Part shown: piece after piece, positions 4,792 to 61,188 of the stretch
How the letters are laid out: the number at the start of each line of letters is the position of its first letter
Numbering within the stretch: the first letter of the stretch is position 1
Origin: Nannobrachium achirus
Lineage: Eukaryota > Chordata > Actinopteri > Myctophiformes > Myctophidae
Assembly (NCBI GenBank): GCA_963921795.1
Contig: OY997640.1
Span: 7,637,091-7,701,090 of the forward strand
Direction of reading: 5' to 3'
Length of the DNA: 64,000 nucleotides
Notes under the pieces: generated by a model
Seen by the model: only the letters and a program-made list of their open reading frames with translations
The model's database searches: none
What the model was told of the DNA's origin: nothing
Program-made: the position numbers and the translations under genes

Positions 4792-5083
4792 TTAATGTGT
4801 CTCCTTGCTATGTTTGTTTGATTTAAACGACTATAAATGTTTCAATCCATGTGTTTACAGCATTACAGAATGACAAGTCAGCTCTGAAGACAGAACTCAC
4901 ATAAACCTTATAGATGTTCTGCTGAATAACGTTATGTGTATACAGTTTCTTGACATGTGACCTCGATCTATTTATATTATTTAGTATACAACATTTAAAT
5001 GAATGTAAAACTTTCAATGCATGCATGTGTTTACAGCAGATGGTTTACAGTAAATGACAATAGCTTTAATGACTGTCTTACAG

Positions 5084-17760: not shown

Positions 17761-18130
17761 ACCTGCAGCATGGAACTCACTTCCTCTGCTGAGTCAAACT
17801 ACGGTGAGCACAAAGGGACACTGCATGCAGCTGCGCTGTTCTTGCACCAGGTGGCGGTAGAACTATACAGTACAATACATTGAAAGGAAAACACATCGAT
17901 TTAGTAGAAATTAATTAGGGATAATTATTTCTAACTCTGTTACACTTACAAAAACATTTTTTTTAACATTACATTTTCCTCTCCAAAGTACTCCTACAAC
18001 ACCATCTGAAAGTATAAATTAATTCGGGCCTTACAGGGTTAAAGTCTATATTTTAATATTCCATTAAAATCTTTAGTGTTTTGCGAATTATTTGGGGACA
18101 GAGAGCAGAGTTCAGAAATATAAGGTAAAT

Positions 18131-18330
18131 TAAAGCTGCAAGCAGCAATGACCGGGCCCTCGCAGCTCTACCCACGTCACAAGGGGCAGCAGCCAATCGG
18201 AAGAGGGGGCGGGGCTAGTTAAACCAGTTAAACCAACACTTCCTGTTTGGCGAAGAGAGCACCAATTATGGTTAAGGACTCTCAAATATGGACGACTGAT
18301 GTCACTGACAGTAGGCTGACGTCATAGTAC
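18131..18330. repeat. Dispersed repeat (AAAGCTGCAAGCAGC family)
   Basis: AAAGCTGCAAGCAGCAATGA, CCGGGCCCTCGCAGCTCTAC and CCAATCGGAAGAGGGG match 27209-27300, where the family lies inside a hAT element. A related opening, AGCTGCAAGCAGCGAT, is at 61360. Confidence 0.75.
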
Positions 18331-18558
18331 TGATGTCATAGTAATACTCACAAAAAACCCTGTAACAAAAGTGATAGTTTGAGTGACATATAGCTAATCT
18401 GCATAATGACGCCACATATCGCTTGGTGACATCACAGTATCATTATGGCCACATAAATGTCCTGTAAAATGACTTGTCCAATAAAACATGGACGTGTCAT
18501 TTACCCGTAAATCTATTTGCTTCCGATCCAATTAGTCTGTAAATTAGTTGTCGACTCG

Positions 18559-19627
18559 ATGTTACACTGGACCGTGCACCTGAATGCGGGATCGCCAGGC
18601 CGTACTGCTGTGGTGGTGGAGAACAAAGTGTACTGCTTTGAAATTGAAGCGGTCAACCAGCGTCATCAGATCGAGGTGCACATCTTCAACACAGTGACTT
18701 TGCGCTGGGTGAAGGCGCCACCAGTCTCAAATGGACAAGGAGAACCTCCCCTTGAGGTTCCCTCCATGCTACCTGGCCACACAGCTGTGCTTATAGAAGA
18801 CGTCGCCTATGTATGGGGACCTGGTAGGTATGACGATAAGTATCACGCTGTTCCCATGGTTCTTTATGCATTTGATGTGGACATCCACAGGTGGTCTCGA
18901 CCCAAAGTTTCAGGAACCATTCCAACGTCGAGGCAAGGCCACTCAGCCTGTGTCTTAAGGAAGGTTATGTATATCCATGGAGGAATGGATAATGGTTCCG
19001 TTTTCCACGGCGGCTATAATGACGTGTACAAGATAGACACCACCACGATGGTCTGGTCTTATATTAACACCGGAGGCACAGAACCATCTGGTTCATCAGA
19101 CCACTCTGCCACCATCATCGGGACAAAGATGTTTGTCCCGATGTTTGACGACTACCACAACTACATCAGAGTATTTGACACAGATACCAACTGCTGGCTA
19201 AGAACACCTCCTGCACAGTCTCTTCCATATGGACCCTGGGATGACGGACGGCACGCGGCCATTCCCTACAATGGAGAGCTGTACATATTTATCAGCTGTG
19301 AGTGTGATGGAAGAATCGAGACGTGGTCAAATGATCTGTGGAAGTTTAATCCAGAGACCTTTTCCTGGAAGGCAGTTGAACCCAAGGGGAAAGGCCCGGC
19401 TGGTGGGGTGGTTAGGATGAGCTGCTGCATGGTGGGAGATCGTATCGTCCTCTTTACAGGACATAACCAGATGGGTATGGAGCGGAATGGAACTGTACAT
19501 ATTAGACATGAGTCCTAGTCTGAAGACGTTATGCAAGCTGGCAGTTATTGGGTACGGTCTGGAGAAGTCAGGTCTCCCACACAACATCAAGAGGGAACTG
19601 GCAGCCATGACTACCAACAGCAACTAA
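18559..19627 (+). pseudogene. klhdc3: Kelch domain-containing protein 3-like processed pseudogene
   Basis: An intronless copy of the kelch-repeat protein KLHDC3. KLHDC3 is known as a substrate receptor of a cullin-2 E3 ligase that reads C-terminal degrons. The frame begins MLHWTVHLNAG and runs through recognisable blades: VHIFNTVTLRWVK, VLYAFDVDIHRWSRPKVSGT, GHSACVLRKVMYIHGG, IRVFDTDTNCWL, YNGELYIF and LWKFNPETFSWKAVEPKGKG. Several of the paired glycines that close kelch blades are lost (for example YCFEIEA where GG is expected). Near 19485-19500 the frame shifts. The tail LYILDMSPSLKTLCKLAVI to LAAMTTNSN continues in another frame to TAA at 19625-19627, so the continuous frame ends early at 19518. 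The parent gene has introns; absence of all of them over about 1.07 kb indicates a retrocopy. No poly-A tail remains. Confidence 0.88.
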
Positions 19628-23263: not shown

Positions 23264-23786
23264 CAGGGGCGTCAATTGGGTATGGCAGGGGTATGCAGCT
23301 GCCATACCCTGGGTCCAGGGGGGGGGGGGGGAAATAAAAGTTACTTTTAAATATAAATCCTTGAATGTCTCTTTCTCTATCTGTGCTGATTATTATGTTG
23401 TTAAATTACAGTAAAATAACTACAAATGCCAAATTTAACAAAATGGTCACTTTAACAAGGTATTATAATTATATTCTCCACACTTGAATTCTCCCCATCT
23501 TGACAAAATGGTATATTCCCAGGTTCTGCAGGTCAGCTGCACAAGTGCAATGCATTATTGTTAATTGTGGCATGTTTACTAACATGCCAAGTTTAGCTGC
23601 ACTTGAACAACTGTTCCAGGCTGCCATATCCAGCCCAAGAAACCGTAGAAACGGGGGGAAAAATAAAATGTACTTAAATGTATCATGCCTGTTGCTAAGG
23701 TATGGCAACATGACTGGTGTCTTCGCGCATGTGCAAGACACCAGTCATGTTGCCATACCTTAGCTTTTTCTGAACTGACGCCAATG
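23264..23786. mobile_element. hAT MITE (CAGGGGCGTCAATTGGG family) within a flanking duplication
   Basis: Left end CAGGGGCGTCAATTGGGTAT; right end AACTGACGCCAATG. It contains the same perfect hairpin as the 12379 copy (23695-23763, stem CTAAGGTATGGCAACATGAC). The flanks repeat over about 30 bp (GTGCATGTATGGAATTCTAA at about 23234, and GTGCATGTAAGG at about 23789), far longer than a hAT duplication. Confidence 0.82.
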
Positions 23787-24190: not shown

Positions 24191-24200
24191 ATCTGCAAGC

Positions 24201-24214
24201 TCACAATGCGACGT
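24201..24214 (+). repeat. Left 14-bp target-site duplication of the Penelope dimer
   Basis: TCACAATGCGACGT, repeated exactly at 31082-31095. Removing everything between restores a hairpin module (CTGCAAGCTCACAA, TGCGACG, TGTTGTGAGCTTGTAG), so the duplicated target spans the hairpin apex. Confidence 0.9.
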
Positions 24215-24377
24215 TCAGAAAGAGAGAGAAAACCAGGTGCTCTTCGGAGAATACGAATAGTAAAAACAAGTAAAAATGGTGCTCTTGGATCGACGGGATC
24301 AATTCATCAAAAGGAAAAAAGTGATCCAGGCACTCAGGTAAAAAAGGGAGGAACAAACTTTATTAAAGTCTAAAAGC

Positions 24378-24416
24378 CGACATGTTTCGACCAGAGGCTG
24401 GTCATCATCAGGGCAT
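24378..24416 (-). ncRNA. Hammerhead-ribozyme-like motif of the Penelope element
   Basis: On the minus strand the order is GCC, CTGATGA (24405-24411), a hairpin GACCAG-CCT-CTGGTC, GAAA (24385-24388), C-AT-G, TC, GGC. This gives all conserved hammerhead core segments, a six-pair stem II, a minimal two-pair stem III with cleavage expected after the ATGTC, and a three-pair stem I start (GCC/GGC). One extra T sits between CTGATGA and stem II. Hammerheads with very short stem III are known from Penelope-like elements, where they act in dimers. Activity is not shown by sequence. Confidence 0.7.
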
Positions 24417-24722
24417 ACTGAAGAAATACAAGCAAACACACTCAATATATCAACTGGGACTGGGCAATCAACAAGAGTCAATTAAGGTGGGGCCTGATTG
24501 TGTAATTACACAAGAATGCATAGCAATCAACACACCTGTGTGTCAGACCCAGCTATATCACTGCATCATTTGAGCAGTATAGAGTACAACCAATAAGGCA
24601 TCAAGTTACAAATATCAACCACAAAGTATAACAATAAACAATAACCAAAAATATTTATTACAAATAAAGAAAATAAAGAAAAATAAAGAAAAGGACAATA
24701 AAATCACAAAGAAAAGATCCAG

Positions 24723-27700
24723 TTACAAAAAACACATGAAATCAATGTCCTCATTGAGCCCGGGGGGAGTAAGAGCATCCAGGGAGTGAATCCAGAAAGA
24801 TTCCCTCTGGTTCAACTTCCTTTGGCGATCACCCCCTCTTGTAAGTGGTTTTATATGTTCAATGCCTGTAATACGTAGGAGAGTATCGTTACTGTTGTGG
24901 CATTGATTGAAGTGCCTGGCTATGGGATAATTAAAATTATTGGTGCGAATGGCATATTTATGTTCAGCCAGACGGTCACGGAGGCGGCGCTTAGTCCTGC
25001 CCACATAAAACACTTTTGGGCATGTACATGTAAGGCGATAAATAACATGAGTGGTGTTGCAATTAATAAAGTCGTTAATTGTATGTGTTTTCTGTGTTTT
25101 CAAATCAATAAATGTTTTTGATTGTAAGACATTGGTACAATGAGGACAATTCATGCATTTGTACATTCCCATAGGTTTATTAAGCCATGTCTCCTTTTTA
25201 ATAGGAGCTAGATGGCTGTGCATCAATTTATCACGTAGGGTGGGAGCTCTTCTAAATGAAAATATAGGAGGTTCGGGAAACACTTCTCTGAGGGTGGAAT
25301 CACTCTCGATAATAGACCAATTGGTTCTTATAATGTGTTGGACCTTAGAAGCTACAGTACTATATTGGCTAACAAAAAAAGGACGGGACTGTAAAATAGC
25401 GGGTCTCCGTTTCTTTTTACGTAGCAATGAGGCTCGGTCAATGTTATAGGCTTTGTTTCGTGCCTGAGTGACACAGCCCGATTTGTAGCCTCTCTCATTG
25501 AATCTGCTAGTCATATCAGTAGCTTTCTGGTCAAAATCAACAGGCCTATCACAAATACGGCGTAGCCGTTGGAACTGTCCAAAAGGGATATTTTTTATAA
25601 GATGGGGTGGGTGAAAAGAGTCAGCCCTCAGTACTGTGTTTCGCGAAGTTTCTTTTCTGTATAGGGTAGTGTGGAGAGTACCAGATTCGTCTTTAAAGAT
25701 TGTTAAATCAAGAAAATTAATGCTTTGTTGTGAATATTCTATTGTCAATCTAATGTTGTCATTTAACGAGTTAAGATACCTGTGAAACTGTAGGAGTTGA
25801 GTCTCGGAACCATTGAATATCAGCAACAAATCATCAATATATCTGCCAAAAAAAGTAATACAATTAAACCAAGGATTAATTGGATTTAAAACAAACATTT
25901 TTTCCCAGTGGCCCAGGTAAAGACATGCATAATTAGGGGAAAAACATGAGCCCATAGGTACACCTATCAGTTGTTTATAGATTTCGTCTGAAAACATGAA
26001 CACATTATTATTTATGATCCAGTCAGTTAGAGAAATAATAAAGTCAGTAGGGGGTGACGAGTCTGTTGGTCTGTCTGCGAGAAAATGTGTTAGCGCCTGC
26101 AGACCATCATTGTGGTCTATATTTGTATACAGAGACTCCACATCCATAGTGACCAGATAATTAGTTTGACAATTATCAAGTTCTGAAAGTTTATTTAACA
26201 CATCCGTGGTATCTTCTATGAAAGATGGAAGTTTCTTAACATAAGGCTTAATGTAGAAATCAATAAATTTAGACGCAGGCTCTGTTAGAGTGCCGTTTCC
26301 AGAAATGATAGGACGACCAGGGGGATTATTAAAAGGCTGCTTGTGTATTTTAGGAAGTAAATAAAAAGCTGCCAACATTGGAGATTCTACCAATAAAAAT
26401 TTGAATTCATTCTCTGTAATCCATCCCGATTCCTTAGCATTAGTTAGAAGCCCATGGAATTCGGTCGACATAGAACTGAGTGGATTACTAGCAAGTTTCT
26501 TATAATGTTTAGAATCCAATTGGCGTTTAGCTTCTGTAACATAGGCGTCTCTAGATAACACTACAACCGCTCCCCCCTTGTCCGCAGAGCGGACAATAAT
26601 GTCGTCATTTTTGGACAATTCGTCGAGTGCTGTGCGTTCCTTATGAGTCAAATTACATCTGTTCACCCCATCAGGGGTATCATGGAATAGCTTGTCAATG
26701 TCATAATCAACCTTTTTTGTAAAAGAAATAAGCGAAGGATTCGAAACCAAGGGAGAAAAGCTAGATTTGGGTTTAAACAAAGAGCGGACCGGAGGCAGCT
26801 CTGAGTCAAGTGTGCAGGGGCGGTTTTTATAAACTGGGGGCTCCCCACAAAGGTAGCAAAAGAGGCCCCCCCATGAGCACGCGTGAAAAATAGGTATGCG
26901 CGAAAAACAGTATGCGCGCGTGCGAAGTGCAGGAATTAAAAATGCCACCCTCCAACTCAATACCTATACCTTTACCTTTTACCTTTTGGATCTATTTGAT
27001 TAATTTAAGAAGAGTACAGTAAGGTAAGTAAGGTAATCAAAGGTATATAGAGTAGGCCTATATGTATATTTTTATACAGGACATATTTGATGCAGGACAA
27101 TAATTATTTAATTAATAGCAATAAGGGAATATCAGTGAATAATAATACTTTAAAATGATATTTGTACAATTCCTTTTTAATTATTATTTTTCAAAATGTA
27201 GATAAAATTAAAGCTGCAAGCAGCAATGACCGGGCCCTCGCAGCTCTACCCACGTCGCAAGGGGCAACAGCCAATCAGAAGAGGGGACGGGACTAAGTTA
27301 AACCAATTAAGGTGAAGGACTCTTAATGAAGTCATATGACACCAGCCACAAGTCTGTACGACAAACGGTTCATGGGATATAGAGGCACTTCCTGTTTGGC
27401 GAAGGGCACTTCCTGTTTGGCAAAGGAAGCGCCAATTAAGGTTAAGGACTCTTAATCAAGTCATATGACACCAGCCCCGAGTCTGTACGACAAACAGTTC
27501 ATGAGATATAGAGGCACTTCCTGTTTGGTGAAGGGCACTTCCTGTTTGGCGAAGGAAGTTTTATCTCTGTGTGAAACCTATTGACTCAAGTGAGCAGTTG
27601 GTCAATTCTTTAAAAAAACATAACTTTTGACAGGAATGAGCTAGAGACTTACTTTTTTTTTCTAAATGCTCAGAATAATGAGCCCAGCAGGGGGCCCCCT

Positions 27701-27970
27701 CTGCCTTGGGGCTCTACGCAGTTGCGTAGTCTGCGTAGAGCAAATAACCGCCCCTGCAAGTGTGGGCCTATCAATATTAGAATCTAGGACAGGCGTCTGC
27801 CTGGCAAAATTATGTGTATGACCAGACTGGTGATGATACCATGTTTTTAGATGTAAATTACGATAAAATCGAAATAGATCAATTTTAGTATTAAACAGAT
27901 TGGTCTTGTAGGTAGGGGCATACGACATACCTTTAGAGAGTACAGACAAATGATCCCTATTAAGGTTCAT
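24723..27970 (-). pseudogene. Penelope-like reverse transcriptase/GIY-YIG ORF, disrupted copy
   Basis: Same protein as the right-hand copy (28380-30677), starting at 27970 with MNLNRDHLSVLSKG and ending DIDFMCFL at 24723. After IDRPT it is interrupted by a hAT element (26815-27756 plus an 8-bp duplication), and coding resumes at LDSELPPVRS. The continuous frame 24723-26960 runs into the hAT sequence and has no ATG there, so it cannot give the native N-terminus. The reverse transcriptase motifs (MDVESLYTNI, GVPMGSCFSPN, YIDDLLL) and the nuclease segment remain unbroken. Confidence 0.92.
26815..27756. mobile_element. hAT element, 942 bp, inserted in the left Penelope copy
   Basis: Termini CAGGGGCGGTTTTTAT and AAATAACCGCCCCTG. 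CAAGTGTG is duplicated at 26807-26814 and 27757-27764. The undamaged right arm gives the empty site (CACACTTGACTC at about 28585). It contains about 350 bp of the AAAGCTGCAAGCAGC dispersed repeat (27209-27560) with internal tandem parts (GGCACTTCCTGTTTGGCGAA). No transposase ORF. Confidence 0.93.
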
Positions 27971-28168
27971 TGTAGACAGGTTGACTACCGAGGATAACGT
28001 TTCCGCGGCTGGTCCCTCAGAGGGATCTGTCGTGGGGTAGTCGGGGGACGTAGTGCGGTACGATCCGTGCGTCGCTGCCGAGGCTGTGCGCCGTCGCCGT
28101 CTGCCCCGCCGTGTCTTCGGTCTGTAGTGGGGTTGGATTGTAGCGGGGGCCAGTCCTGAGACTCCCGA

Positions 28169-28181
28169 TCTAAAAAAGTGT
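28169..28181. other. Centre of the Penelope palindrome
   Basis: A 13-nt spacer (TCTAAAAAAGTGT) between ...GACTCCCGA and TCGGGAGTC... Both copies end here, so both lack a 5' terminal repeat. Confidence 0.9.
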
Positions 28182-28379
28182 TCGGGAGTCTCAGGACTGG
28201 CCCCCGCTACAATCCAACCCCACTACAGACCGAAGACACGGCGGGGCAGACGGCGACGGCGCACAGCCTCGGCAGCGACGCACGGATCGTACCGCACTAC
28301 GTCCCCCGACTACCCCACGACAGATCCCTCTGAGGGACCAGCCGCGGAAACGTTATCCTCGGTAGTCAACCTGTCTACA

Positions 28380-30677
28380 ATGAACCTTAATAGGGATCAT
28401 TTGTCTGTACTCTCTAAAGGTATGTCGTATGCCCCTACCTACAAGACCAATCTGTTTAATACTAAAATTGATCTATTTCGATTTTATCGTAATTTACATC
28501 TAAAAACATGGTATCATCACCAGTCTGGTCATACACATAATTTTGCCAGGCAGACGCCTGTCCTAGATTCTAATATTGATAGGCCCACACTTGACTCAGA
28601 GCTGCCTCCGGTCCGCTCTTTGTTTAAACCCAAATCTAGCTTTTCTCCCTTGGTTTCGAATCCTTCGCTTATTTCTTTTACAAAAAAGGTTGATTATGAC
28701 ATTGACAAGCTATTCCATGATACCCCTGATGGGGTGAACAGATGTAATTTGACTCATAAGGAACGCACAGCACTCGACGAATTGTCCAAAAATGACGACA
28801 TTATTGTCCGCCCTGCGGACAAGGGGGGAGCGGTTGTAGTGTTATCTAGAGACGCCTATGTTACAGAAGCTAAACGCCAATTGGATTCTAAACATTATAA
28901 GAAACTTGCTAGTAATCCACTCAGTTCTATGTCGACCGAATTCCATGGGCTTCTAACTAATGCTAAGGAATCGGGATGGATTACAGAGAATGAATTCAAA
29001 TTTTTATTGGTAGAATCTCCAATGTTGGCAGCTTTTTATTTACTTCCTAAAATACACAAGCAGCCTTTTAATAATCCCCCTGGTCGTCCTATCATTTCTG
29101 GAAACGGCACTCTAACAGAGCCTGCGTCTAAATTTATTGATTTCTACATTAAGCCTTATGTTAAGAAACTTCCATCTTTCATAGAAGATACCACGGATGT
29201 GTTAAATAAACTTTCAGAACTTGATAATTGTCAAACTAATTATCTGGTCACTATGGATGTGGAGTCTCTGTATACAAATATAGACCACAATGATGGTCTG
29301 CAGGCGCTAACACATTTTCTCGCAGACAGACCAACAGACTCGTCACCCCCTACTGACTTTATTATTTCTCTAACTGACTGGATCATAAATAATAATGTGT
29401 TCATGTTTTCAGACGAAATCTATAAACAACTGATAGGTGTACCTATGGGCTCATGTTTTTCCCCTAATTATGCATGTCTTTACCTGGGCCACTGGGAAAA
29501 AATGTTTGTTTTAAATCCAATTAATCCTTGGTTTAATTGTATTACTTTTTTTGGCAGATATATTGATGATTTGTTGCTGATATTCAATGGTTCCGAGACT
29601 CAACTCCTACAGTTTCACAGGTATCTTAACTCGTTAAATGACAACATTAGATTGACAATAGAATATTCACAACAAAGCATTAATTTTCTTGATTTAACAA
29701 TCTTTAAAGACGAATCTGGTACTCTCCACACTACCCTATACAGAAAAGAAACTTTGCGAAACACAGTACTGAGGGCTGACTCTTTTCACCCACCCCATCT
29801 TATAAAAAATATCCCTTTTGGACAGTTCCAACGGCTACGCCGTATTTGTGATAGGCCTGTTGATTTTGACCAGAAAGCTACTGATATGACTAGCAGATTC
29901 AATGAGAGAGGCTACAAATCGGGCTGTGTCACTCAGGCACGAAACAAAGCCTATAACATTGACCGAGCCTCATTGCTACGTAAAAAGAAACGGAGACCCG
30001 CTATTTTACAGTCCCGTCCTTTTTTTGTTAGCCAATATAGTACTGTAGCTTCTAAGGTCCAACACATTATAAGAACCAATTGGTCTATTATCGAGAGTGA
30101 TTCCACCCTCAGAGAAGTGTTTCCCGAACCTCCTATATTTTCATTTAGAAGAGCTCCCACCCTACGTGATAAATTGATGCACAGCCATCTAGCTCCTATT
30201 AAAAAGGAGACATGGCTTAATAAACCTATGGGAATGTACAAATGCATGAATTGTCCTCATTGTACCAATGTCTTACAATCAAAAACATTTATTGATTTGA
30301 AAACACAGAAAACACATACAATTAACGACTTTATTAATTGCAACACCACTCATGTTATTTATCGCCTTACATGTACATGCCCAAAAGTGTTTTATGTGGG
30401 CAGGACTAAGCGCCGCCTCCGTGACCGTCTGGCTGAACATAAATATGCCATTCGCACCAATAATTTTAATTATCCCATAGCCAGGCACTTCAATCAATGC
30501 CACAACAGTAACGATACTCTCCTACGTATTACAGGCATTGAACATATAAAACCACTTACAAGAGGGGGTGATCGCCAAAGGAAGTTGAACCAGAGGGAAT
30601 CTTTCTGGATTCACTCCCTGGATGCTCTTACTCCCCCCGGGCTCAATGAGGACATTGATTTCATGTGTTTTTTGTAA
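28380..30677 (+). CDS. Penelope-like element protein: reverse transcriptase plus GIY-YIG endonuclease, intact
   Basis: 765 residues. The N-terminal part has LSVLSKGMSYAPT, the conserved pre-RT Penelope motif. The RT core has MDVESLYTNI (from about 292), GVPMGSCFSPN and the catalytic YIDD (394-397). The C-terminal module has VIYRLTC, FYVGRT (671-676), LRDRLAEHK and NQRESFWI, the GIY-YIG nuclease with its catalytic Arg and Glu. Penelope-like elements prime at the target like non-LTR elements but use this nuclease. The frame stays open upstream of the ATG to a stop at 28125-28127, across the palindrome centre, so the true start could be upstream or non-AUG. There are no stops or frameshifts, so it may be recently active. 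Length fits the family. Confidence 0.95.
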   Translation: MNLNRDHLSVLSKGMSYAPTYKTNLFNTKIDLFRFYRNLHLKTWYHHQSGHTHNFARQTPVLDSNIDRPTLDSELPPVRSLFKPKSSFSPLVSNPSLISFTKKVDYDIDKLFHDTPDGVNRCNLTHKERTALDELSKNDDIIVRPADKGGAVVVLSRDAYVTEAKRQLDSKHYKKLASNPLSSMSTEFHGLLTNAKESGWITENEFKFLLVESPMLAAFYLLPKIHKQPFNNPPGRPIISGNGTLTEPASKFIDFYIKPYVKKLPSFIEDTTDVLNKLSELDNCQTNYLVTMDVESLYTNIDHNDGLQALTHFLADRPTDSSPPTDFIISLTDWIINNNVFMFSDEIYKQLIGVPMGSCFSPNYACLYLGHWEKMFVLNPINPWFNCITFFGRYIDDLLLIFNGSETQLLQFHRYLNSLNDNIRLTIEYSQQSINFLDLTIFKDESGTLHTTLYRKETLRNTVLRADSFHPPHLIKNIPFGQFQRLRRICDRPVDFDQKATDMTSRFNERGYKSGCVTQARNKAYNIDRASLLRKKKRRPAILQSRPFFVSQYSTVASKVQHIIRTNWSIIESDSTLREVFPEPPIFSFRRAPTLRDKLMHSHLAPIKKETWLNKPMGMYKCMNCPHCTNVLQSKTFIDLKTQKTHTINDFINCNTTHVIYRLTCTCPKVFYVGRTKRRLRDRLAEHKYAIRTNNFNYPIARHFNQCHNSNDTLLRITGIEHIKPLTRGGDRQRKLNQRESFWIHSLDALTPPGLNEDIDFMCFL

Positions 30678-30979
30678 CTGGATCTTTTCTTTGTGATTTT
30701 ATTGTCCTTTTCTTTATTTTTCTTTATTTTCTTTATTTGTAATAAATATTTTTGGTTATTGTTTATTGTTATACTTTGTGGTTGATATTTGTAACTTGAT
30801 GCCTTATTGGTTGTACTCTATACTGCTCAAATGATGCAGTGATATAGCTGGGTCTGACACACAGGTGTGTTGATTGCTATGCATTCTTGTGTAATTACAC
30901 AATCAGGCCCCACCTTAATTGACTCTTGTTGATTGCCCAGTCCCAGTTGATATATTGAGTGTGTTTGCTTGTATTTCTT

Positions 30980-31012
30980 CAGTATGCCTGGTCGAAACAT
31001 GTCGGCTTTTAG
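30980..31012 (+). other. Inactivated hammerhead-like motif in the right copy
   Basis: TATGC-CTGGTCGAAACATGTCGG lacks the 18 nt present in the left copy between these parts, removing CTGATGA and the 5' strand of stem II. GAAA and the cleavage segment remain. It cannot fold as a hammerhead. Confidence 0.8.
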
Positions 31013-31081
31013 ACTTTAATAAAGTTTGTTCCTCCCTTTTTTACCTGAGTGCCTGGATCACTTTTTTCCTTTTTTTCCTTT

Positions 31082-31095
31082 TCACAATGCGACGT
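31082..31095 (+). repeat. Right 14-bp target-site duplication of the Penelope dimer
   Basis: TCACAATGCGACGT, identical to 24201-24214. It is followed by the right arm of the split hairpin module (GTTGTGAGCTTGTAGATCGG). Confidence 0.9.
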
Positions 31096-31479
31096 GTTGT
31101 GAGCTTGTAGATCGGCTAATTTCAAATAGCCACGGTATAAAATAGGAGTAACTAGTAACTAATGTTTTCAAATAATTGTAGTGGAGTAAAAGTACAATAT
31201 TTTGATCTGAGATGTAGTGGAGTAGAAGTAAAAGTATTGGAAATTGGAAGTACTCAAGTAAAGTACAAATACTTCAAAATTGTACTTAAGTACAGTACTT
31301 AAAGGCCCGCTGACACGCCCCGAAATTATAATAGTATGATACAGTTGGTCACGTCGTCTCTCTGAAATAGTCTGAAACTCATGTCACAGTGTAATCTGCC
31401 CCTCGCCCCCCAACAACAGCTGACCAGTACAGTAAGTAGTCTAAGTAGGCAGGCATATGCCTGACCTCTGTTGCTCTGC

Positions 31480-35452: not shown

Positions 35453-37768
35453 TTAAAGGTCTTCAGGTTTCTGGTTACAGCTAGTGCACACCCTTACAGG
35501 GTGGTCCCAGCCCCACGAGGGAACCGCTCGGCGACCCGGGGAGCAGTCGTCACAAACGCATTGCCCGCAGGCGCGACAGTGGTGCTTGGACAGCATGGCG
35601 CTGAAGTTGCGTTGGCAGCCGTGGCAGCACAGGATGTCCTGGTCAGGCACCCAGTATGCCGGACGGGCAGCGTTCTTCACCAGGCCAAGGGGGATGTCGA
35701 TGGCAGTGACCACAGCCCCCAACGTGTTCGTCACTGCTTCTCCGACCCGCCTCGCCAGCGTTCCGCCCTCCTCTTTCTCAGGCTTAAGCTTAACCTCCAG
35801 CAGTCCTGCCTGTGAAGCTCTCTGCTCAAAGCAGATGTCACAGATCCTAACAGGGCCCACACCCCACCCTTTGTCAGGGATGGGCGTGGCTTTGGAAGAG
35901 CAGCCGTCACAAAAGCCCTCCCCGCACGCCCGGCAGTGATGCTTGGTGTCGTTGTCCTGGAAGACTGCGCCGCACTTATGGCACGCCAAGATGAGGGAGT
36001 TGGGTTTCCAGTAGGCCGGGGCGATCTGATCCGTCAGCCAGGAGGTCACAGCCTTGGCTGGCTTCACGCTGATCTCTGATACAGACTTGGCCACCGAGTT
36101 GACCTCATCCAAAAGGCGCTGCGCTGCATTGCTATTGTCCTTCAAGAAGCCATTGAACCCCGGCCATACATGCAGGATCTCGGTGCGGACGGCTGTCTCC
36201 ACGGGGTCTTGGTTTCCATACCAGAACTGACGGCTTCGGTAGATCACTCCACAGTTTGGACATTCAACCACATACCCGGACCAGGCGTACTTGGCGAGGC
36301 CCATCCATGGAGAATCACAGGAGGCTGAGGTCTTGGATACCACCACAACGTCCTTTCCTTCTTCATAGCAAGCCTTGCAGGTGTAAATGCAATTGTCATA
36401 CTGTGCCGAGTAGCGGCAGTGCTGCTTGTTGTCGTGGCATATTCCTTCCTCTAAGTGGTTTGTGCTGTTCTGGCAGCTAGAACCGCAACTGAGACAAATG
36501 CTTGAACAAGCGAAGTACTCATCGGGGAAGAAGGAATTACGGGCTACAAGGCCGTCTGCGATCTCCCCATTGAAACGCTCACTCAGGGCCTGAAGGGCTT
36601 TGAAGATGACACCAGGTGTGCGAGGGGAGCGGGTGGTGTTATTGTCCAGGAGCTGCTCTATGTGGTTCTGCAGGCCACGGAAGTCAGTGGGAGGGCTGAG
36701 GGTTTGTGTACCCTGGTACTGGACAGTAAAGGCCTTTGGGAAATGACCCAGCTCCTTAAAGCGCTCCAATAGTAGACGAACCACCGACTCGGATGGATTA
36801 TCTGAACCAAGTAGCTTGGTGTGGACCGTTTCATGAAAGATGATCACTGCAGGGCCGAGGGTGAACAGGGGGAAGTGCTTCAGGTAGGCATCAGACGCAT
36901 CACCAAGGAACTTAAAGAGGTCGTCATGGAGACGGTCTGTGTGCGTGCGGTAGATGATAAGATCAGAAATTGCGAGTACCTTGAGTAAGAGGCGGGTGCT
37001 CTGGCCTTGTTTGGAGCTGTTCCCCTGCAGACCCTCTGTATCAATGACTACCACTTTGTGGATAGGGTCAAACGCGGCCCACACCCCCACTGTGCAGGAC
37101 TCTTGTGTCGGGGAGGTCTTGAACACCTCCCTGCCCGTGAAGAACGTGTGGTTCAGGGTGTGGGACTTGCCTTGTCCTGTGTTGCCAAAGATGGACACCA
37201 CCTTCAGCAATAGGTCAGGTTCACAATTCAGTTTCTTCAGGAACGCTGTTTCATCCCTTATCTGCATTTTATCCTTCTCATCGACCAGGAGAAAACTGGA
37301 CACATGCTCCAGCAGTCTTTCTCCCTGAGCTTTGGTCTCATCGGCTCCTTGAGCGGAAGAGGCCGGGGTGGAGTCGGCCTCGACAGGTTTCTCTGGTGGA
37401 GGACACGAGGTGAGCTGGTGATTATTTTCTTTAAATCCACTGTGGGCGCCTTTCTGACAGTCTTGGCACAAGTTCACCGTACAGTTCTGGCAGCCGACCA
37501 CAGGTATATGCCGATTGACGTTGTCCAAGCTTCCATTACTTCCTTTGCAGTTGTCACAACGGGGGACATGGCCAGGCACTGCCTGAACCCTCACATGGTT
37601 CTTCAGATGCTCCTGGTTGTGGGGCCCAAACTCACAGCGAATGCACTGTGAGGTCTTACACACATTACATTCAAACGCAGCTTCCTCAGAACCATCACAC
37701 ACGTAAAGTTCTTGACATATTAGACCAGAATCTAGAATCTTTTCTGAAGATAAGCCATGTCCACTCAT
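35453..37768 (-). CDS. zfyve1: Zinc finger FYVE domain-containing protein 1 (DFCP1)-like, intronless full-length ORF
   Basis: 771 residues, ATG at 37766-37768, TAA at 35453-35455. The N-terminus has Cys/His pairs (CNVCKTSQCIRC, CDNCKG, CQNCTVNLCQDC). An NTPase domain follows with P-loop GNTGQGKS (195-202), TEGLQG and the TSPTQESCTVGVW block. Two C-terminal FYVE fingers carry TKHHCRACGEGFC and SKHHCRACGQCVC, then RVCTSCNQKPEDL. Family knowledge: DFCP1 binds PI3P, marks omegasomes in autophagosome formation and sits on lipid droplets. Vertebrate ZFYVE1 genes have many introns; this one has none, so it is probably a retrogene with an intact frame. Relative to the mammalian protein as I recall it, about 15 residues after AYLKHF (about 299) are missing. 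The second FYVE motif has an unusual extra Cys (GQCVC for GQGFC). No poly-A remnant or promoter was identified. Confidence 0.9.
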   Translation of the reverse strand: MSGHGLSSEKILDSGLICQELYVCDGSEEAAFECNVCKTSQCIRCEFGPHNQEHLKNHVRVQAVPGHVPRCDNCKGSNGSLDNVNRHIPVVGCQNCTVNLCQDCQKGAHSGFKENNHQLTSCPPPEKPVEADSTPASSAQGADETKAQGERLLEHVSSFLLVDEKDKMQIRDETAFLKKLNCEPDLLLKVVSIFGNTGQGKSHTLNHTFFTGREVFKTSPTQESCTVGVWAAFDPIHKVVVIDTEGLQGNSSKQGQSTRLLLKVLAISDLIIYRTHTDRLHDDLFKFLGDASDAYLKHFPLFTLGPAVIIFHETVHTKLLGSDNPSESVVRLLLERFKELGHFPKAFTVQYQGTQTLSPPTDFRGLQNHIEQLLDNNTTRSPRTPGVIFKALQALSERFNGEIADGLVARNSFFPDEYFACSSICLSCGSSCQNSTNHLEEGICHDNKQHCRYSAQYDNCIYTCKACYEEGKDVVVVSKTSASCDSPWMGLAKYAWSGYVVECPNCGVIYRSRQFWYGNQDPVETAVRTEILHVWPGFNGFLKDNSNAAQRLLDEVNSVAKSVSEISVKPAKAVTSWLTDQIAPAYWKPNSLILACHKCGAVFQDNDTKHHCRACGEGFCDGCSSKATPIPDKGWGVGPVRICDICFEQRASQAGLLEVKLKPEKEEGGTLARRVGEAVTNTLGAVVTAIDIPLGLVKNAARPAYWVPDQDILCCHGCQRNFSAMLSKHHCRACGQCVCDDCSPGRRAVPSWGWDHPVRVCTSCNQKPEDL

Positions 37769-37839
37769 CCTGTCTGAAGAATTTGTGCACAGCTTTGGCT
37801 ACAAGTACAACAACAATGAGAGAGAAATTAATGTAACAT

Positions 37840-49107: not shown

Positions 49108-49806
49108 TCATCCGTCTTTCTCCTTCGACTTGAGGAAGGGCTGGTGGAGCACGTCGTACAGACGGCTGGCCTTTCGCGGCCCTAATCCTGGACAGAGGCC
49201 CAGGTCTTCTTTAGAAGCGCTGATGATCCCCTCCACGGAAGAGAAGGTGGACAAGAGCGTGATGGCGTCGGTCTTGTTGATGGACCTCACGGTGGTCAGG
49301 CAGTCGGTCACCGTGGACAGATAGTCCTTCTCCACGCGCTCCTTCAGGAGATCGGCGGGCTTCTTCTCGTAGGCCTTGTACGTCTCCAGGTACCGCCCCG
49401 CCTCCTCCGGGCTCCAGGCCAGGATGAGCGTGCACTCGGCGCGGATGCAGACGGGGGCGAGCGCCTTCAGCGCGTGCTGCGGATCCTTCACGTCCACCTG
49501 CACCAGCAGCACGCGCAGGGCGAAGCCGCCGCGTCCCAGCTGCTTGAGGCGCCCGTGTATGTAGTCGGGGTTGAGGCTGTGGTACCTGAGGCTGAGGAAG
49601 AGGGCGCACGTCGTCAGTCCCAGGACGTAGTCCGGCACGACGTCGCCGAACTCCCACGGGACGCTCCGCACGAACTTCAGGACGGGGTTTCCCCTCTGCC
49701 GGGGGCTGACGACGATGCTGCTTCCGGAGCCCGCCGGCTTGCTCCCCAGGCTGAGCCCTGGCTCTGGCTTTTGACCGTCTACGCATGCCTGGCTACTGTC
49801 AGTCAT
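49108..49806 (-). CDS. ercc1: ERCC1-like DNA repair protein, intronless ORF
   Basis: 232 residues, ATG at 49804-49806, TGA at 49108-49110. It opens with a short variable stretch, then [20 protein letters not shown] and [20 protein letters not shown], the start of the ERCC1 central domain. [20 protein letters not shown], then [20 protein letters not shown], and a C-terminal tandem helix-hairpin-helix with [17 protein letters not shown], complete it. Family knowledge: ERCC1 is the non-catalytic partner of XPF in the 5' nuclease of nucleotide excision repair; the C-terminal helix-hairpin-helix pairs with XPF and the central domain binds XPA. Vertebrate ERCC1 genes have about ten exons and a longer N-terminus (human about 297 residues); this copy has no introns and a shorter start. 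It is strongly GC- and CpG-rich against AT-rich surroundings. Most likely a retrogene with an intact frame; expression is unknown. Confidence 0.9.
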
Positions 49807-50095
49807 TTTGAGTTTCCGGTCAGTGTTTAAAGCCCGATGATCCAGAGAGAGAGAAAGAGTGAGAGAGAGAGAATTGACGATGATGATTGATGATTATGAA
49901 GATGGCTGTCGGGTGGAAACGTCATACAGTATGTCCATAACGGCTACCTTTCAGCAAATCAATTGATCCAATGTAGTTATTATTTACACAATCACACAAG
50001 CTCTGGTCAATACTGCTCATTGTCTGCCCGCTGTACACGTATGTTATCTTCATTATTTATCTATCAGTCAGGTTCTCCTCGAAATGACGTAAGAC

Positions 50096-59474: not shown

Positions 59475-60200
59475 TTACTTTGTTGGCCGCCCAGCCCCCA
59501 AAATGGAACAGAGGCCGACATTTTTTTTTTTCTTTTTTTCCTAATGGCCGGCCTGGACCGACCGAGAATGAACTGGCCGTTCAGGAGTTGTCCCGCTTTT
59601 CGGAGATCCCTGTGATGCCAGGGGAACCAAATCCCTTTGGCCAGATGGCAAACCTCTAAGAAATAATACACGAAAGAAGAAGATAAGAAAGATGCAATTG
59701 GAAATTGCAAGTGTGGTTGCCGTGACTATATTCTGCAGCAAGTTAACGGTCATGTGAAGCTCAACCAATACTCAAGCTAGCACCACTCCTCATATGTTTT
59801 TCTTTCAATTTCCAATTGAATCTGATTTCCATCAACTTCCAATGGCATCTGATTCACAAAAATGTTTATCTAGTGGTGAAAATAAAGTTTCCCCAGGACT
59901 ACAGTGTGTTGCCTTGTCGGGCAACCACTAATTAGGCCATACGGGCCATACATAGATTAGCCAAACCTATTGTAATCACAGAGGGGTAAAGGGTGACGTC
60001 ATAATATCGAGCCAATCAGATCAGATGTGTGTTGTGTGACGTCAGACCAGAGCTCTGGTCAACCTGAATAAGATGTGATGCAGTTTGTAAACGTCACATT
60101 TAGTCTGGCTATAAGACCAATTGTGAAGTCTTTACAAACAGAGTGTACCGTGAGAGTCTGGGAGGCAAGGATAAATAGAGAAATAGAGGGGTAGAAAGAG
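59475..60200. other. Region upstream of the zinc-finger ORF
   Basis: No clear exon. 60000-60120 holds two TGACGTCA-like sites (TGACGTCATAAT at about 59992 and GTGACGTCAGACC at about 60037), CRE-like and possibly promoter elements. GGATAAATAGAG at about 60168-60179 is a weak TATA candidate. Confidence 0.35.
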
Positions 60201-60288
60201 ATTGACAGAGAATATATTAGTCTTTCCAGCCTGCAAGAGACAAAGGAACGGCTTCCAATTTACAGTCCAAGTAGCAGAAGTGGTGTCC

Positions 60289-61188
60289 ATGAACCAATCT
60301 TCCAAAACACAGGTGTCCTGTTCTAAGTGTCCATACGCCTTCATGTCTCGGGTCACCCTCCAAGAAAACACGATGAGCAGTCACAACAACCTCTGCTGTC
60401 AAATGATGAGAAATGGACAGCTCCCCTCCAGCTGTTTAACCAGCCAGAAACAAGGAGACACAGACAAACCAAGATCTTGTGAGGACTTCAATGCAGCCGG
60501 GAGAAGTGAAGAAACATTTGATGACTTACACAGGAAACAAAACCTCATATGTGATAAGAGTTTCATTGAGGTATCGACACAGTATGCCCACCGGAAAGAA
60601 AAACCTTTCCAGTGTAAAGAGTGTGATAAGAGTTTCAGTCAGTTAAGTAACCTGAAGACACACCAGCGTACCCACACTGGAGAAAAACCCTTTGTGTGTA
60701 AACAGTGTGACAAGAGTTTCAGTAAGTTATGGACTCTGAAGACACACCAGCGTACCCACACTGGAGAAAAATCATTTGTGTGTAAACAGTGTGACAGGGG
60801 TTTCAGTGTGTTAGGGACTTTGAAGATACACCAGCGTATCCACACTGGAGAAAAACCTTTCGTCTGTAAACAGTGTGACAAGCGTTTCAGTCAGTTAGGT
60901 GACCTGAAGAATCACCAGCGTGTCCACACTGGAGAAAAACCCTTTGTGTGTAAGCAGTGTGATAAGGGTTTTGCTACGTTACGTAACCTGAAGGTACACC
61001 AGCGTGTCCATACCGGTGAGAAACCCTTTGTGTGTAAACAGTGTGACAAGAGTTTTAGTGTGTTAGGTCACCTGAAGACACATCAGCGTGTCCACACTGG
61101 AGAAAAACCCTTCAGCTGTAAACAGTGTGACAAGAGTTTCAGTGTGTTAAGTAACCTGAAGAGGCACCAGCGTGTCCACACCACATAA
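60289..61188 (+). CDS. Krüppel-type C2H2 zinc-finger protein, seven fingers
   Basis: First in-frame ATG at 60289 gives 299 residues, ending TAA at 61186-61188. The frame is open to 60202 without an ATG, and AG acceptors (TCTTTCCAG at 60230, TTTACAG at 60264) make a spliced last exon plausible. Fingers run from about 60604 in 84-nt steps, each C-x2-C-x12-H-x3-H with TGEKP linkers; recognition helices vary (QLSNLKT, KLWTLKT, VLGTLKI, QLGDLKN, TLRNLKV, VLGHLKT, VLSNLKR). An N-terminal degenerate finger (CSKCPYAF without the His pair) and the KEKPF-linked LICDKSFIEVS remnant precede them. No KRAB, SCAN or FINTRIM domain is visible. Expected role: sequence-specific DNA binding in the nucleus. The near-identical scaffold (FVCKQCDKSF) indicates recent internal duplication. 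Confidence 0.92.
   Translation: MNQSSKTQVSCSKCPYAFMSRVTLQENTMSSHNNLCCQMMRNGQLPSSCLTSQKQGDTDKPRSCEDFNAAGRSEETFDDLHRKQNLICDKSFIEVSTQYAHRKEKPFQCKECDKSFSQLSNLKTHQRTHTGEKPFVCKQCDKSFSKLWTLKTHQRTHTGEKSFVCKQCDRGFSVLGTLKIHQRIHTGEKPFVCKQCDKRFSQLGDLKNHQRVHTGEKPFVCKQCDKGFATLRNLKVHQRVHTGEKPFVCKQCDKSFSVLGHLKTHQRVHTGEKPFSCKQCDKSFSVLSNLKRHQRVHTT

What the first reader, a model, noticed from the sequence alone, without database searches (positions are those of the whole stretch)
24201..31095. Head-to-head Penelope-like dimer forms a palindrome with about 2.9-kb arms, inserted as one unit
Two near-identical copies joined 5' to 5' with only 13 nt between them are bounded by a single 14-bp target duplication. 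Both copies keep almost identical coding sequence, and the frame runs open across the centre. Penelope-like elements are known in tandem or partly inverted arrangements, but a nearly complete symmetrical dimer with one target duplication constrains the mechanism (twin priming, or reverse transcription of a joined template). Any read-through transcript would be a 2.9-kb hairpin and a potential source of small RNAs.
Basis: partly seen in the sequence, partly recalled or inferred. Interest (0 to 1): 0.85.

Follow-up and report, generated by a model that had tools for sequence, protein, structure and literature searches.

The report
Two-headed retrotransposon made by double priming
An animal genome carries a jumping gene inserted as two mirror-image copies joined head to head, and its sister copies suggest that both strands of the cut target DNA each started a copy, one from each of two start points in the element's RNA.

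Summary
The palindrome is real. Two copies of a Penelope-like element lie 5'-to-5' at 24215-31081 inside one 14-bp target duplication. They differ by 2 substitutions, a 17-nt deletion, a 942-nt hAT-like insert in the left arm, and unequal 3' ends. The left arm has a 94-nt 3' tail; the right arm has the alternative short end. The 13-nt centre is native left-arm sequence; both arms are 5'-truncated.

The host genome (1.66 Gb) was searchable. The 16 independent head-to-head pairs I could classify each have one short and one tailed end. In a second dimer (C2:24.98M, 1.35-kb arms, 14-bp TSD) the tail lies on one arm and the extra 5' bases on the other, so neither arm can be a copy of the other.

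Best explanation: both target strands are cut about 14 bp apart and each 3' end primes reverse transcription, one at each of the two known Penelope start sites, on RNA from one source. Head-to-head repeats, tails and cutting of both strands are already published for Penelope. The nearly complete symmetric dimer and the one-short-one-long rule are the additions.

The parts
24201..24214 (+). left copy of the 14-bp target site duplication TCACAATGCGACGT
   Evidence: (D4)
24215..24308 (-). 94-nt 3' tail of the left arm (long RT start site), absent from the right arm
   Evidence: same long end in sister copies
24376..24414 (-). hammerhead-like motif (CTGATGA ... GAAAC ... GTC/GGC) in the left arm; 17 nt of it (24395-24411) missing from the right arm
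   Evidence: letters; fold; deletion; no Rfam hammerhead match; motif recognised from memory
24726..26814 (-). left-arm ORF part: RT and GIY-YIG-like endonuclease, cut off by the hAT-like insert
26807..27764 (.). hAT-like insert 26815-27756 (942 nt, CAGGGGCGG ends) with 8-bp duplication CAAGTGTG on both sides; in one arm only, so younger than the dimer
   Evidence: superfamily recalled
27757..28168 (-). 5' portion of the left arm
28169..28181 (-). 13-nt centre; native 5' sequence of the left arm (ACACTTTTTTAGA in sense)
   Evidence: C23:3.55M copy, 85% identical there
28182..31073 (+). right arm: uninterrupted frame to 30674 (RT, GIY-YIG-like), 3' UTR with damaged hammerhead-like motif, short 3' end
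31074..31081 (+). extra TTTCCTTT at the short end, read as slippage at RT initiation
   Evidence: extra runs at four other short ends
31082..31095 (+). right copy of the 14-bp target site duplication
   Evidence: D4
24191..24214 (.). left part of a palindromic target; with 31096-31112 it makes an 18-pair hairpin in the rejoined empty site
   Evidence: z = -4.6
31096..31112 (.). right part of the palindromic target

Best explanation
A single insertion of a GIY-YIG Penelope-like retrotransposon in which both strands of the cut target served as primers. The endonuclease, probably as a dimer, cut the two strands about 14 bp apart, leaving two 3' overhangs. The left one primed reverse transcription at the distal (tail) start site and the right one at the proximal (short) start site, on RNA from one source, probably one molecule with a broken 5' end. 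Both cDNAs stopped within 13 nt of each other inside the ORF and were joined without visible homology, possibly by one RT jumping end-to-end onto the other cDNA. Shown: outward 3' ends, two different start sites, one 14-bp TSD, near-identical arms, and the one-short-one-long rule in every pair classified. Inferred: the dimer, the single RNA molecule and the way the ends were joined.
For: 16 of 16 independent head-to-head pairs that I could classify have one short and one tailed end. For the youngest subfamily one motif with up to 2 mismatches gives 20 places = 13 loci, of which 7 are pairs, 7 of 7 mixed. Single insertions use either end (9 short, 3 long), so both are real start sites. At C2:24.98M the short-ended arm holds 8 extra native 5' nt and the other arm holds the tail; at C3:19.59M the short-ended arm reaches about 1 kb further 5' than the tailed arm: in both, neither arm can be a copy of the other. 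Arms within a pair are almost identical (window 2 real differences, C2 0 of 1353) while the two dimers differ by about 1%. TSD median 14 nt in 20 insertions. A purified Penelope-like protein (PAc) cleaves and extends both strands and starts at two adjacent sites that bound the tail (PMC11167929, main text read).
Against: The window dimer taken alone also fits fold-back, because its longer arm owns both the tail and the centre. [quoted passage not shown] C3:48.17M shows a 14-bp fold-back at its centre, so snap-back synthesis occurs in this family. No direct tandem was seen among the 13 young loci, although the template must extend past the tail. Gene conversion could also have made the arms alike.
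Confidence: 0.66

Rival explanations
1. Fold-back (self-priming): one target-primed cDNA (left arm, with tail) snapped back at its 3' end and copied itself, making the right arm; the 13-nt centre is the loop.
For: Self-priming was proposed for head-to-head Penelope palindromes, there on an antisense template (PMC3846280, discussion section read). The 13-nt centre belongs to the tailed arm, as this needs. C3:48.17M has a short fold-back at its centre. Near-equal 5' ends come for free.
Against: By eye, no complementarity is seen at the 3' end of the left cDNA to prime a snap-back (judged against an 85% identical relative). The right arm ends at the family's short start site, with an extra run like those at four other short ends. 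At C2:24.98M and C3:19.59M neither arm contains all of the other. Short ends occur alone in nine single insertions.
Confidence: 0.2
2. Assembly artefact, for example a palindromic chimeric read built into the assembly.
For: No reads could be inspected.
Against: The arms differ by an hAT-like insert with its own 8-bp duplication, a 94-nt tail, a 17-nt deletion and two substitutions; the flanks carry one 14-bp TSD; the contig is 77.6 Mb; the same architecture recurs at other loci with other flanks.
Confidence: 0.03
3. The dimer was copied as a unit from an already head-to-head source locus, or from a joined transcript.
For: Head-to-head loci exist in the genome and could be transcribed through.
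Against: The centre occurs once in the genome with up to 2 mismatches; the nine other pairs whose centres were printed have other centres; both outer ends are RT start sites.
Confidence: 0.06
4. Two successive insertions, the second landing at the 5' end of the first, or a later segmental inversion.
For: A secondary insertion into a Penelope copy is published (PMC3846280, passages).
Against: One TSD encloses both arms; no second duplication is seen at the centre; the arms share all but two of the family-variable sites (end artefacts set aside).
Confidence: 0.03

Closest known systems
Penelope families of the rotifer Adineta vaga, e.g. Pen2a_Av (Arkhipova et al. 2013, PMC3846280; passages and the discussion section read)
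   Different: There the inverted part described is mostly a pseudo-LTR; here the inverted arm is a nearly complete copy. Self-priming was their preferred explanation; two loci here contradict the simple form of it for this family.
Poseidon PAc from Anolis carolinensis (Frangieh et al. 2024, PMC11167929; main text read)
   Same: GIY-YIG plus telomerase-like RT; two adjacent RT start sites that bound the tail; hammerhead motif; cleavage and extension of both strands.
   Different: In vitro; the main text describes no head-to-head products and saw no difference in start site between strands, whereas the genomic pairs classified here combine the two sites.
LINE-1 twin priming (recalled, not looked up)
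   Same: Two priming events at one target give inverted pieces.
   Different: L1 gives a 5' inversion of a different segment of one RNA; here the same segment is copied twice with both 3' ends outward.

Membership tests
Penelope-like elements (EN+) | Reverse transcriptase domain | tested here: met
   Pfam RVT_1, E 9e-9 and 8.2e-9, above the curated cut-off
Penelope-like elements (EN+) | C-terminal GIY-YIG endonuclease | tested here: inconclusive
   Pfam GIY-YIG E 0.0047, 17.6 bits, below the 22.6-bit cut-off; C-terminal as expected
Penelope-like elements (EN+) | Alternative 3' ends with and without tail | tested here: met
   Two end classes about 94 nt apart
Penelope-like elements (EN+) | Inverted (head-to-head) arrangement enclosed by one TSD (frequent, not obligatory) | tested here: met
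   16 pairs classified; TSDs extracted for 11 of them
Penelope-like elements (EN+) | Hammerhead ribozyme motif (frequent, not obligatory) | tested here: inconclusive
   Core letters and two stems present (z -1.86); no Rfam hammerhead match at E up to 5
Penelope-like elements (EN+) | Tandem or partial-tandem arrangement (usual, not defining) | tested here: not met
   No direct tandem among the 13 young loci by motif positions
Penelope-like elements (EN+) | Place in the RT tree and clade (Neptune, Poseidon, Penelope) | not tested
   No RT tree was built
L1-type twin priming | Inverted segment differs from the direct segment (recalled) | tested here: not met
   Both arms hold the same segment

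The most novel reading that the evidence does not exclude
Penelope integration is inherently two-sided: a protein dimer on one RNA assigns one of the two start sites to each cut strand, so head-to-head dimers are the regular complete product and single copies are reactions in which one side failed. The two start sites and the tail would then exist to let two polymerases load on one RNA.
Probability: 0.35. Interest if true: 0.78.

Novelty: new variant of a known kind. Interest (0 to 1): 0.52.

Why it matters
[quoted passage not shown] A young dimer with two nearly complete arms, together with the rule of one short and one tailed end in every pair classified, makes a specific model testable: one start site per target strand. 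It argues against plain self-priming for this family, and would explain why Penelope copies so often carry inverted repeats.

Tried and rejected
Palindromic target as the cause of the dimer: the rejoined empty site of the window is a strong hairpin (z -4.6), but only 2 of 20 sites have z below -4 and 3 of 20 below -2; the C2 dimer's target is ordinary (z -0.88). Rejected as the general cause.

Two-fold symmetry of the target around the TSD: P 0.086, 0.044 and 0.0095 for three window sizes, uncorrected. Inconclusive.

Relatives in viral contigs: none confirmed. Solved-structure relatives by sequence: none at E up to 1. Rfam at E up to 5: four matches, all below gathering scores: two microRNA-precursor models on the palindrome's centre (E 0.0004 and 0.0009) and one snoRNA model once in each arm (E 0.24); taken as chance.

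Hammerhead cleavage as the source of common 5' ends: 7 mini pairs and 7 singles end at T 38-46, upstream of the motif; one single (C9:19.63M) does begin at the expected cleavage site but has no clear TSD. A transcription start at T 38-46 is inferred only.

Left out of the pair and single counts because degraded, incompletely seen or without a readable second end: C23:3.55M, C5:53.74M, C9:2.64M, C2:31.88M, C2:5.23M, C14:54.15M, C9:21.42M, and the long-ended hits without a detected partner. A T-rich run inside the tailed arm of C8:67.79M shows that such runs are not confined to short ends.

Full report
The observation. The window holds two copies of one element in head-to-head orientation between 24215 and 31081, in a single perfect 14-bp duplication at 24201-24214 and 31082-31095. 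The arms pair over 2403, 412 and 86 nt in three blocks. Apart from the ends they differ by two substitutions, each private to one arm. The arms are not interchangeable. The left arm holds a 942-nt insert with CAGGGGCGG/CCGCCCCTG ends and an 8-bp duplication, hAT-like by these features (superfamily recalled). It also has a 94-nt 3' tail. The right arm lacks 17 nt of a hammerhead-like motif and has eight extra bases, TTTCCTTT, before the duplication. These differences speak against an assembly artefact; reads could not be inspected.

What it is. The open frame through the right arm (849 codons, 28128-30674) matches RVT_1 (E 9e-9) and, weakly and below the curated cut-off, GIY-YIG (E 0.0047). With the tail, the inverted arrangement and the TSD this is an endonuclease-bearing Penelope-like element; its clade was not tested. 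No solved structure matches by sequence at E up to 1.

Sister copies. The window lies in a 1.66-Gb genome at C3:7637091-7701090, which I could search. A copy on C23, 85% identical there, carries the 13-nt centre as the normal continuation upstream of the left arm, and goes on upstream. So the centre belongs to the left arm, both arms are 5'-truncated, and they end 13 nt apart. The centre junction occurs once in the genome with up to 2 mismatches.

Two 3' ends. On the coordinate T (reverse complement of window 24215-24460), most 3' ends fall near T 152 (short; up to about T 165 in single alignments) or near T 240-246 (long, tail). A 32-nt motif with up to 2 mismatches gives 20 places in 13 loci: 7 head-to-head pairs and 6 loci with one arm. 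The 7 pairs each have one short and one long end: the window, C14:28.08M, C10:4.81M, C12:0.206M, C3:8.82M, C1:25.55M and C2:24.98M. More diverged pairs add C13:27.33M (its long end stops about 20 nt earlier), C3:19.59M, C3:48.17M, C8:67.79M (no clear TSD), C16:9.41-9.42M (arm interrupted, imperfect TSD), one insertion present in several copies (C11:36.35M, C3:19.43M, C3:61.07M, short side degraded and read by eye; C5:68.04M, C11:27.33M and C3:26.93M joined to it because of the equal 16-nt spacing; counted once), and C21:55.85M, C21:31.94M and C9:37.25M (from match coordinates only). That makes 16 of 16 mixed. If each side chose between the ends at even odds, 7 of 7 has probability 0.0078 and 16 of 16 about 1.5e-5 (0.5 to the 16th, by hand). 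One search used a tail-bearing query and so favours tailed copies; one search used a query without the tail, and no short/short pair was found among its pairs that I examined. Only 40 of 144 and 40 of 212 candidates were scored in these two searches, so older copies are a sample.

Singles. Nine single insertions have the short end (C6:70.10M, C6:19.04M, C14:11.20M, C7:30.00M, C4:27.94M, C12:23.7M and C10:8.04M with a TSD; C9:19.63M and C20:54.58M without a clear one) and three the long end (C1:5.37M, C14:50.55M, C3:48.24M). Both ends are therefore start sites in their own right. Extra T-rich runs like TTTCCTTT in the window's right arm occur at four other short ends (C12:0.206M, C4:27.94M, C1:25.55M, C3:19.59M), which I read as slippage at initiation. 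Against this, C8:67.79M has such a run inside its tailed arm, so simple-repeat growth is not excluded.

Mechanism. Fold-back needs one arm to be a copy of the other. At C2:24.98M the right, short-ended arm has eight native bases (CTCTCCAC) beyond the left arm's 5' end, while the left arm has the tail. At C3:19.59M the short-ended arm reaches about 1 kb further 5' than the tailed arm. In both, each arm has native sequence that the other lacks. In four others with unequal arms (window, C3:48.17M, C8:67.79M, C16:9.41M) the tailed arm is the longer, which fold-back would also allow, and C3:48.17M has a 14-bp fold-back at its centre. So fold-back may contribute at centres but does not explain the two arms in general. 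Arms of one pair are nearly identical (2 real differences in the window dimer, 0 of 1353 at C2) while the dimers differ by about 1% (its count of 6 for the window includes four end artefacts, and counts with C2R include four more). One source, plausibly one RNA, served both arms; gene conversion between arms is not excluded. Seven mini pairs and seven singles end at T 38-46, near a TTCAGT motif, which suggests an RNA 5' end (inferred). Two dimers whose arms end 8 and 13 nt apart inside the ORF are best explained by one broken RNA copied twice. TSDs of 20 insertions have median 14 nt, 9 of 20 exactly 14, so the two cuts are staggered with 3' overhangs that can both prime.

Known background. Head-to-head inverted pseudo-LTRs enclosed by one TSD, with an optional tail on one of them, are published for Penelope, with self-priming preferred as explanation (PMC3846280). 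A purified Poseidon protein cuts and extends both strands and starts at two adjacent sites that bound the tail (PMC11167929). I saw no statement that every pair uses both sites, nor a nearly complete symmetric dimer, in what I read: the main text of the second paper, passages and discussion of the first, and passages of PMC12910113 and PMC6431247. Of the other papers in the listings I saw titles and abstract openings only. The older papers on Penelope structure that these cite were not read, so priority is not established.

Verdict. The structure is real, young, and explained by a known class of element using both target strands. It is an unusually complete example, and the rule found in its sister copies makes the integration model testable.

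Noticed in passing
window 26815-27756: 942-nt hAT-like non-autonomous insert with an internal 127-bp direct repeat (27303-27429/27432-27558), nested in the left arm; related stretches lie at 18127-18285.
   Followed up: partly
window 23694-23764: Perfect 30-bp hairpin (11-nt loop) of a palindromic repeat; at C12:23.7M (L041) a single Penelope copy sits in the centre of the same palindrome.
   Followed up: partly
L040 about 4970-5070 (C3:19.59M): A further short palindromic insert with a long hairpin inside a Penelope arm.
   Followed up: no
L053 (C9:19.63M): Single Penelope fragment whose 5' end coincides with the expected hammerhead cleavage site (GTC/GGC); it could come from a self-cleaved RNA or be chance.
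   Followed up: no
window 49111-49893 (-): Open frame of 261 codons matching Rad10/ERCC1 (E 3.5e-46) with a helix-hairpin-helix domain in one frame: possible processed copy of ERCC1.
   Followed up: no
window 35456-37798 (-): Frame of 781 codons with a FYVE zinc finger and a weak GBP match.
   Followed up: no
window 18511-19515 (+) and 60187-61185 (+): Kelch-repeat frame (KLHDC2/KLHL20-like) and C2H2 zinc-finger frame.
   Followed up: no
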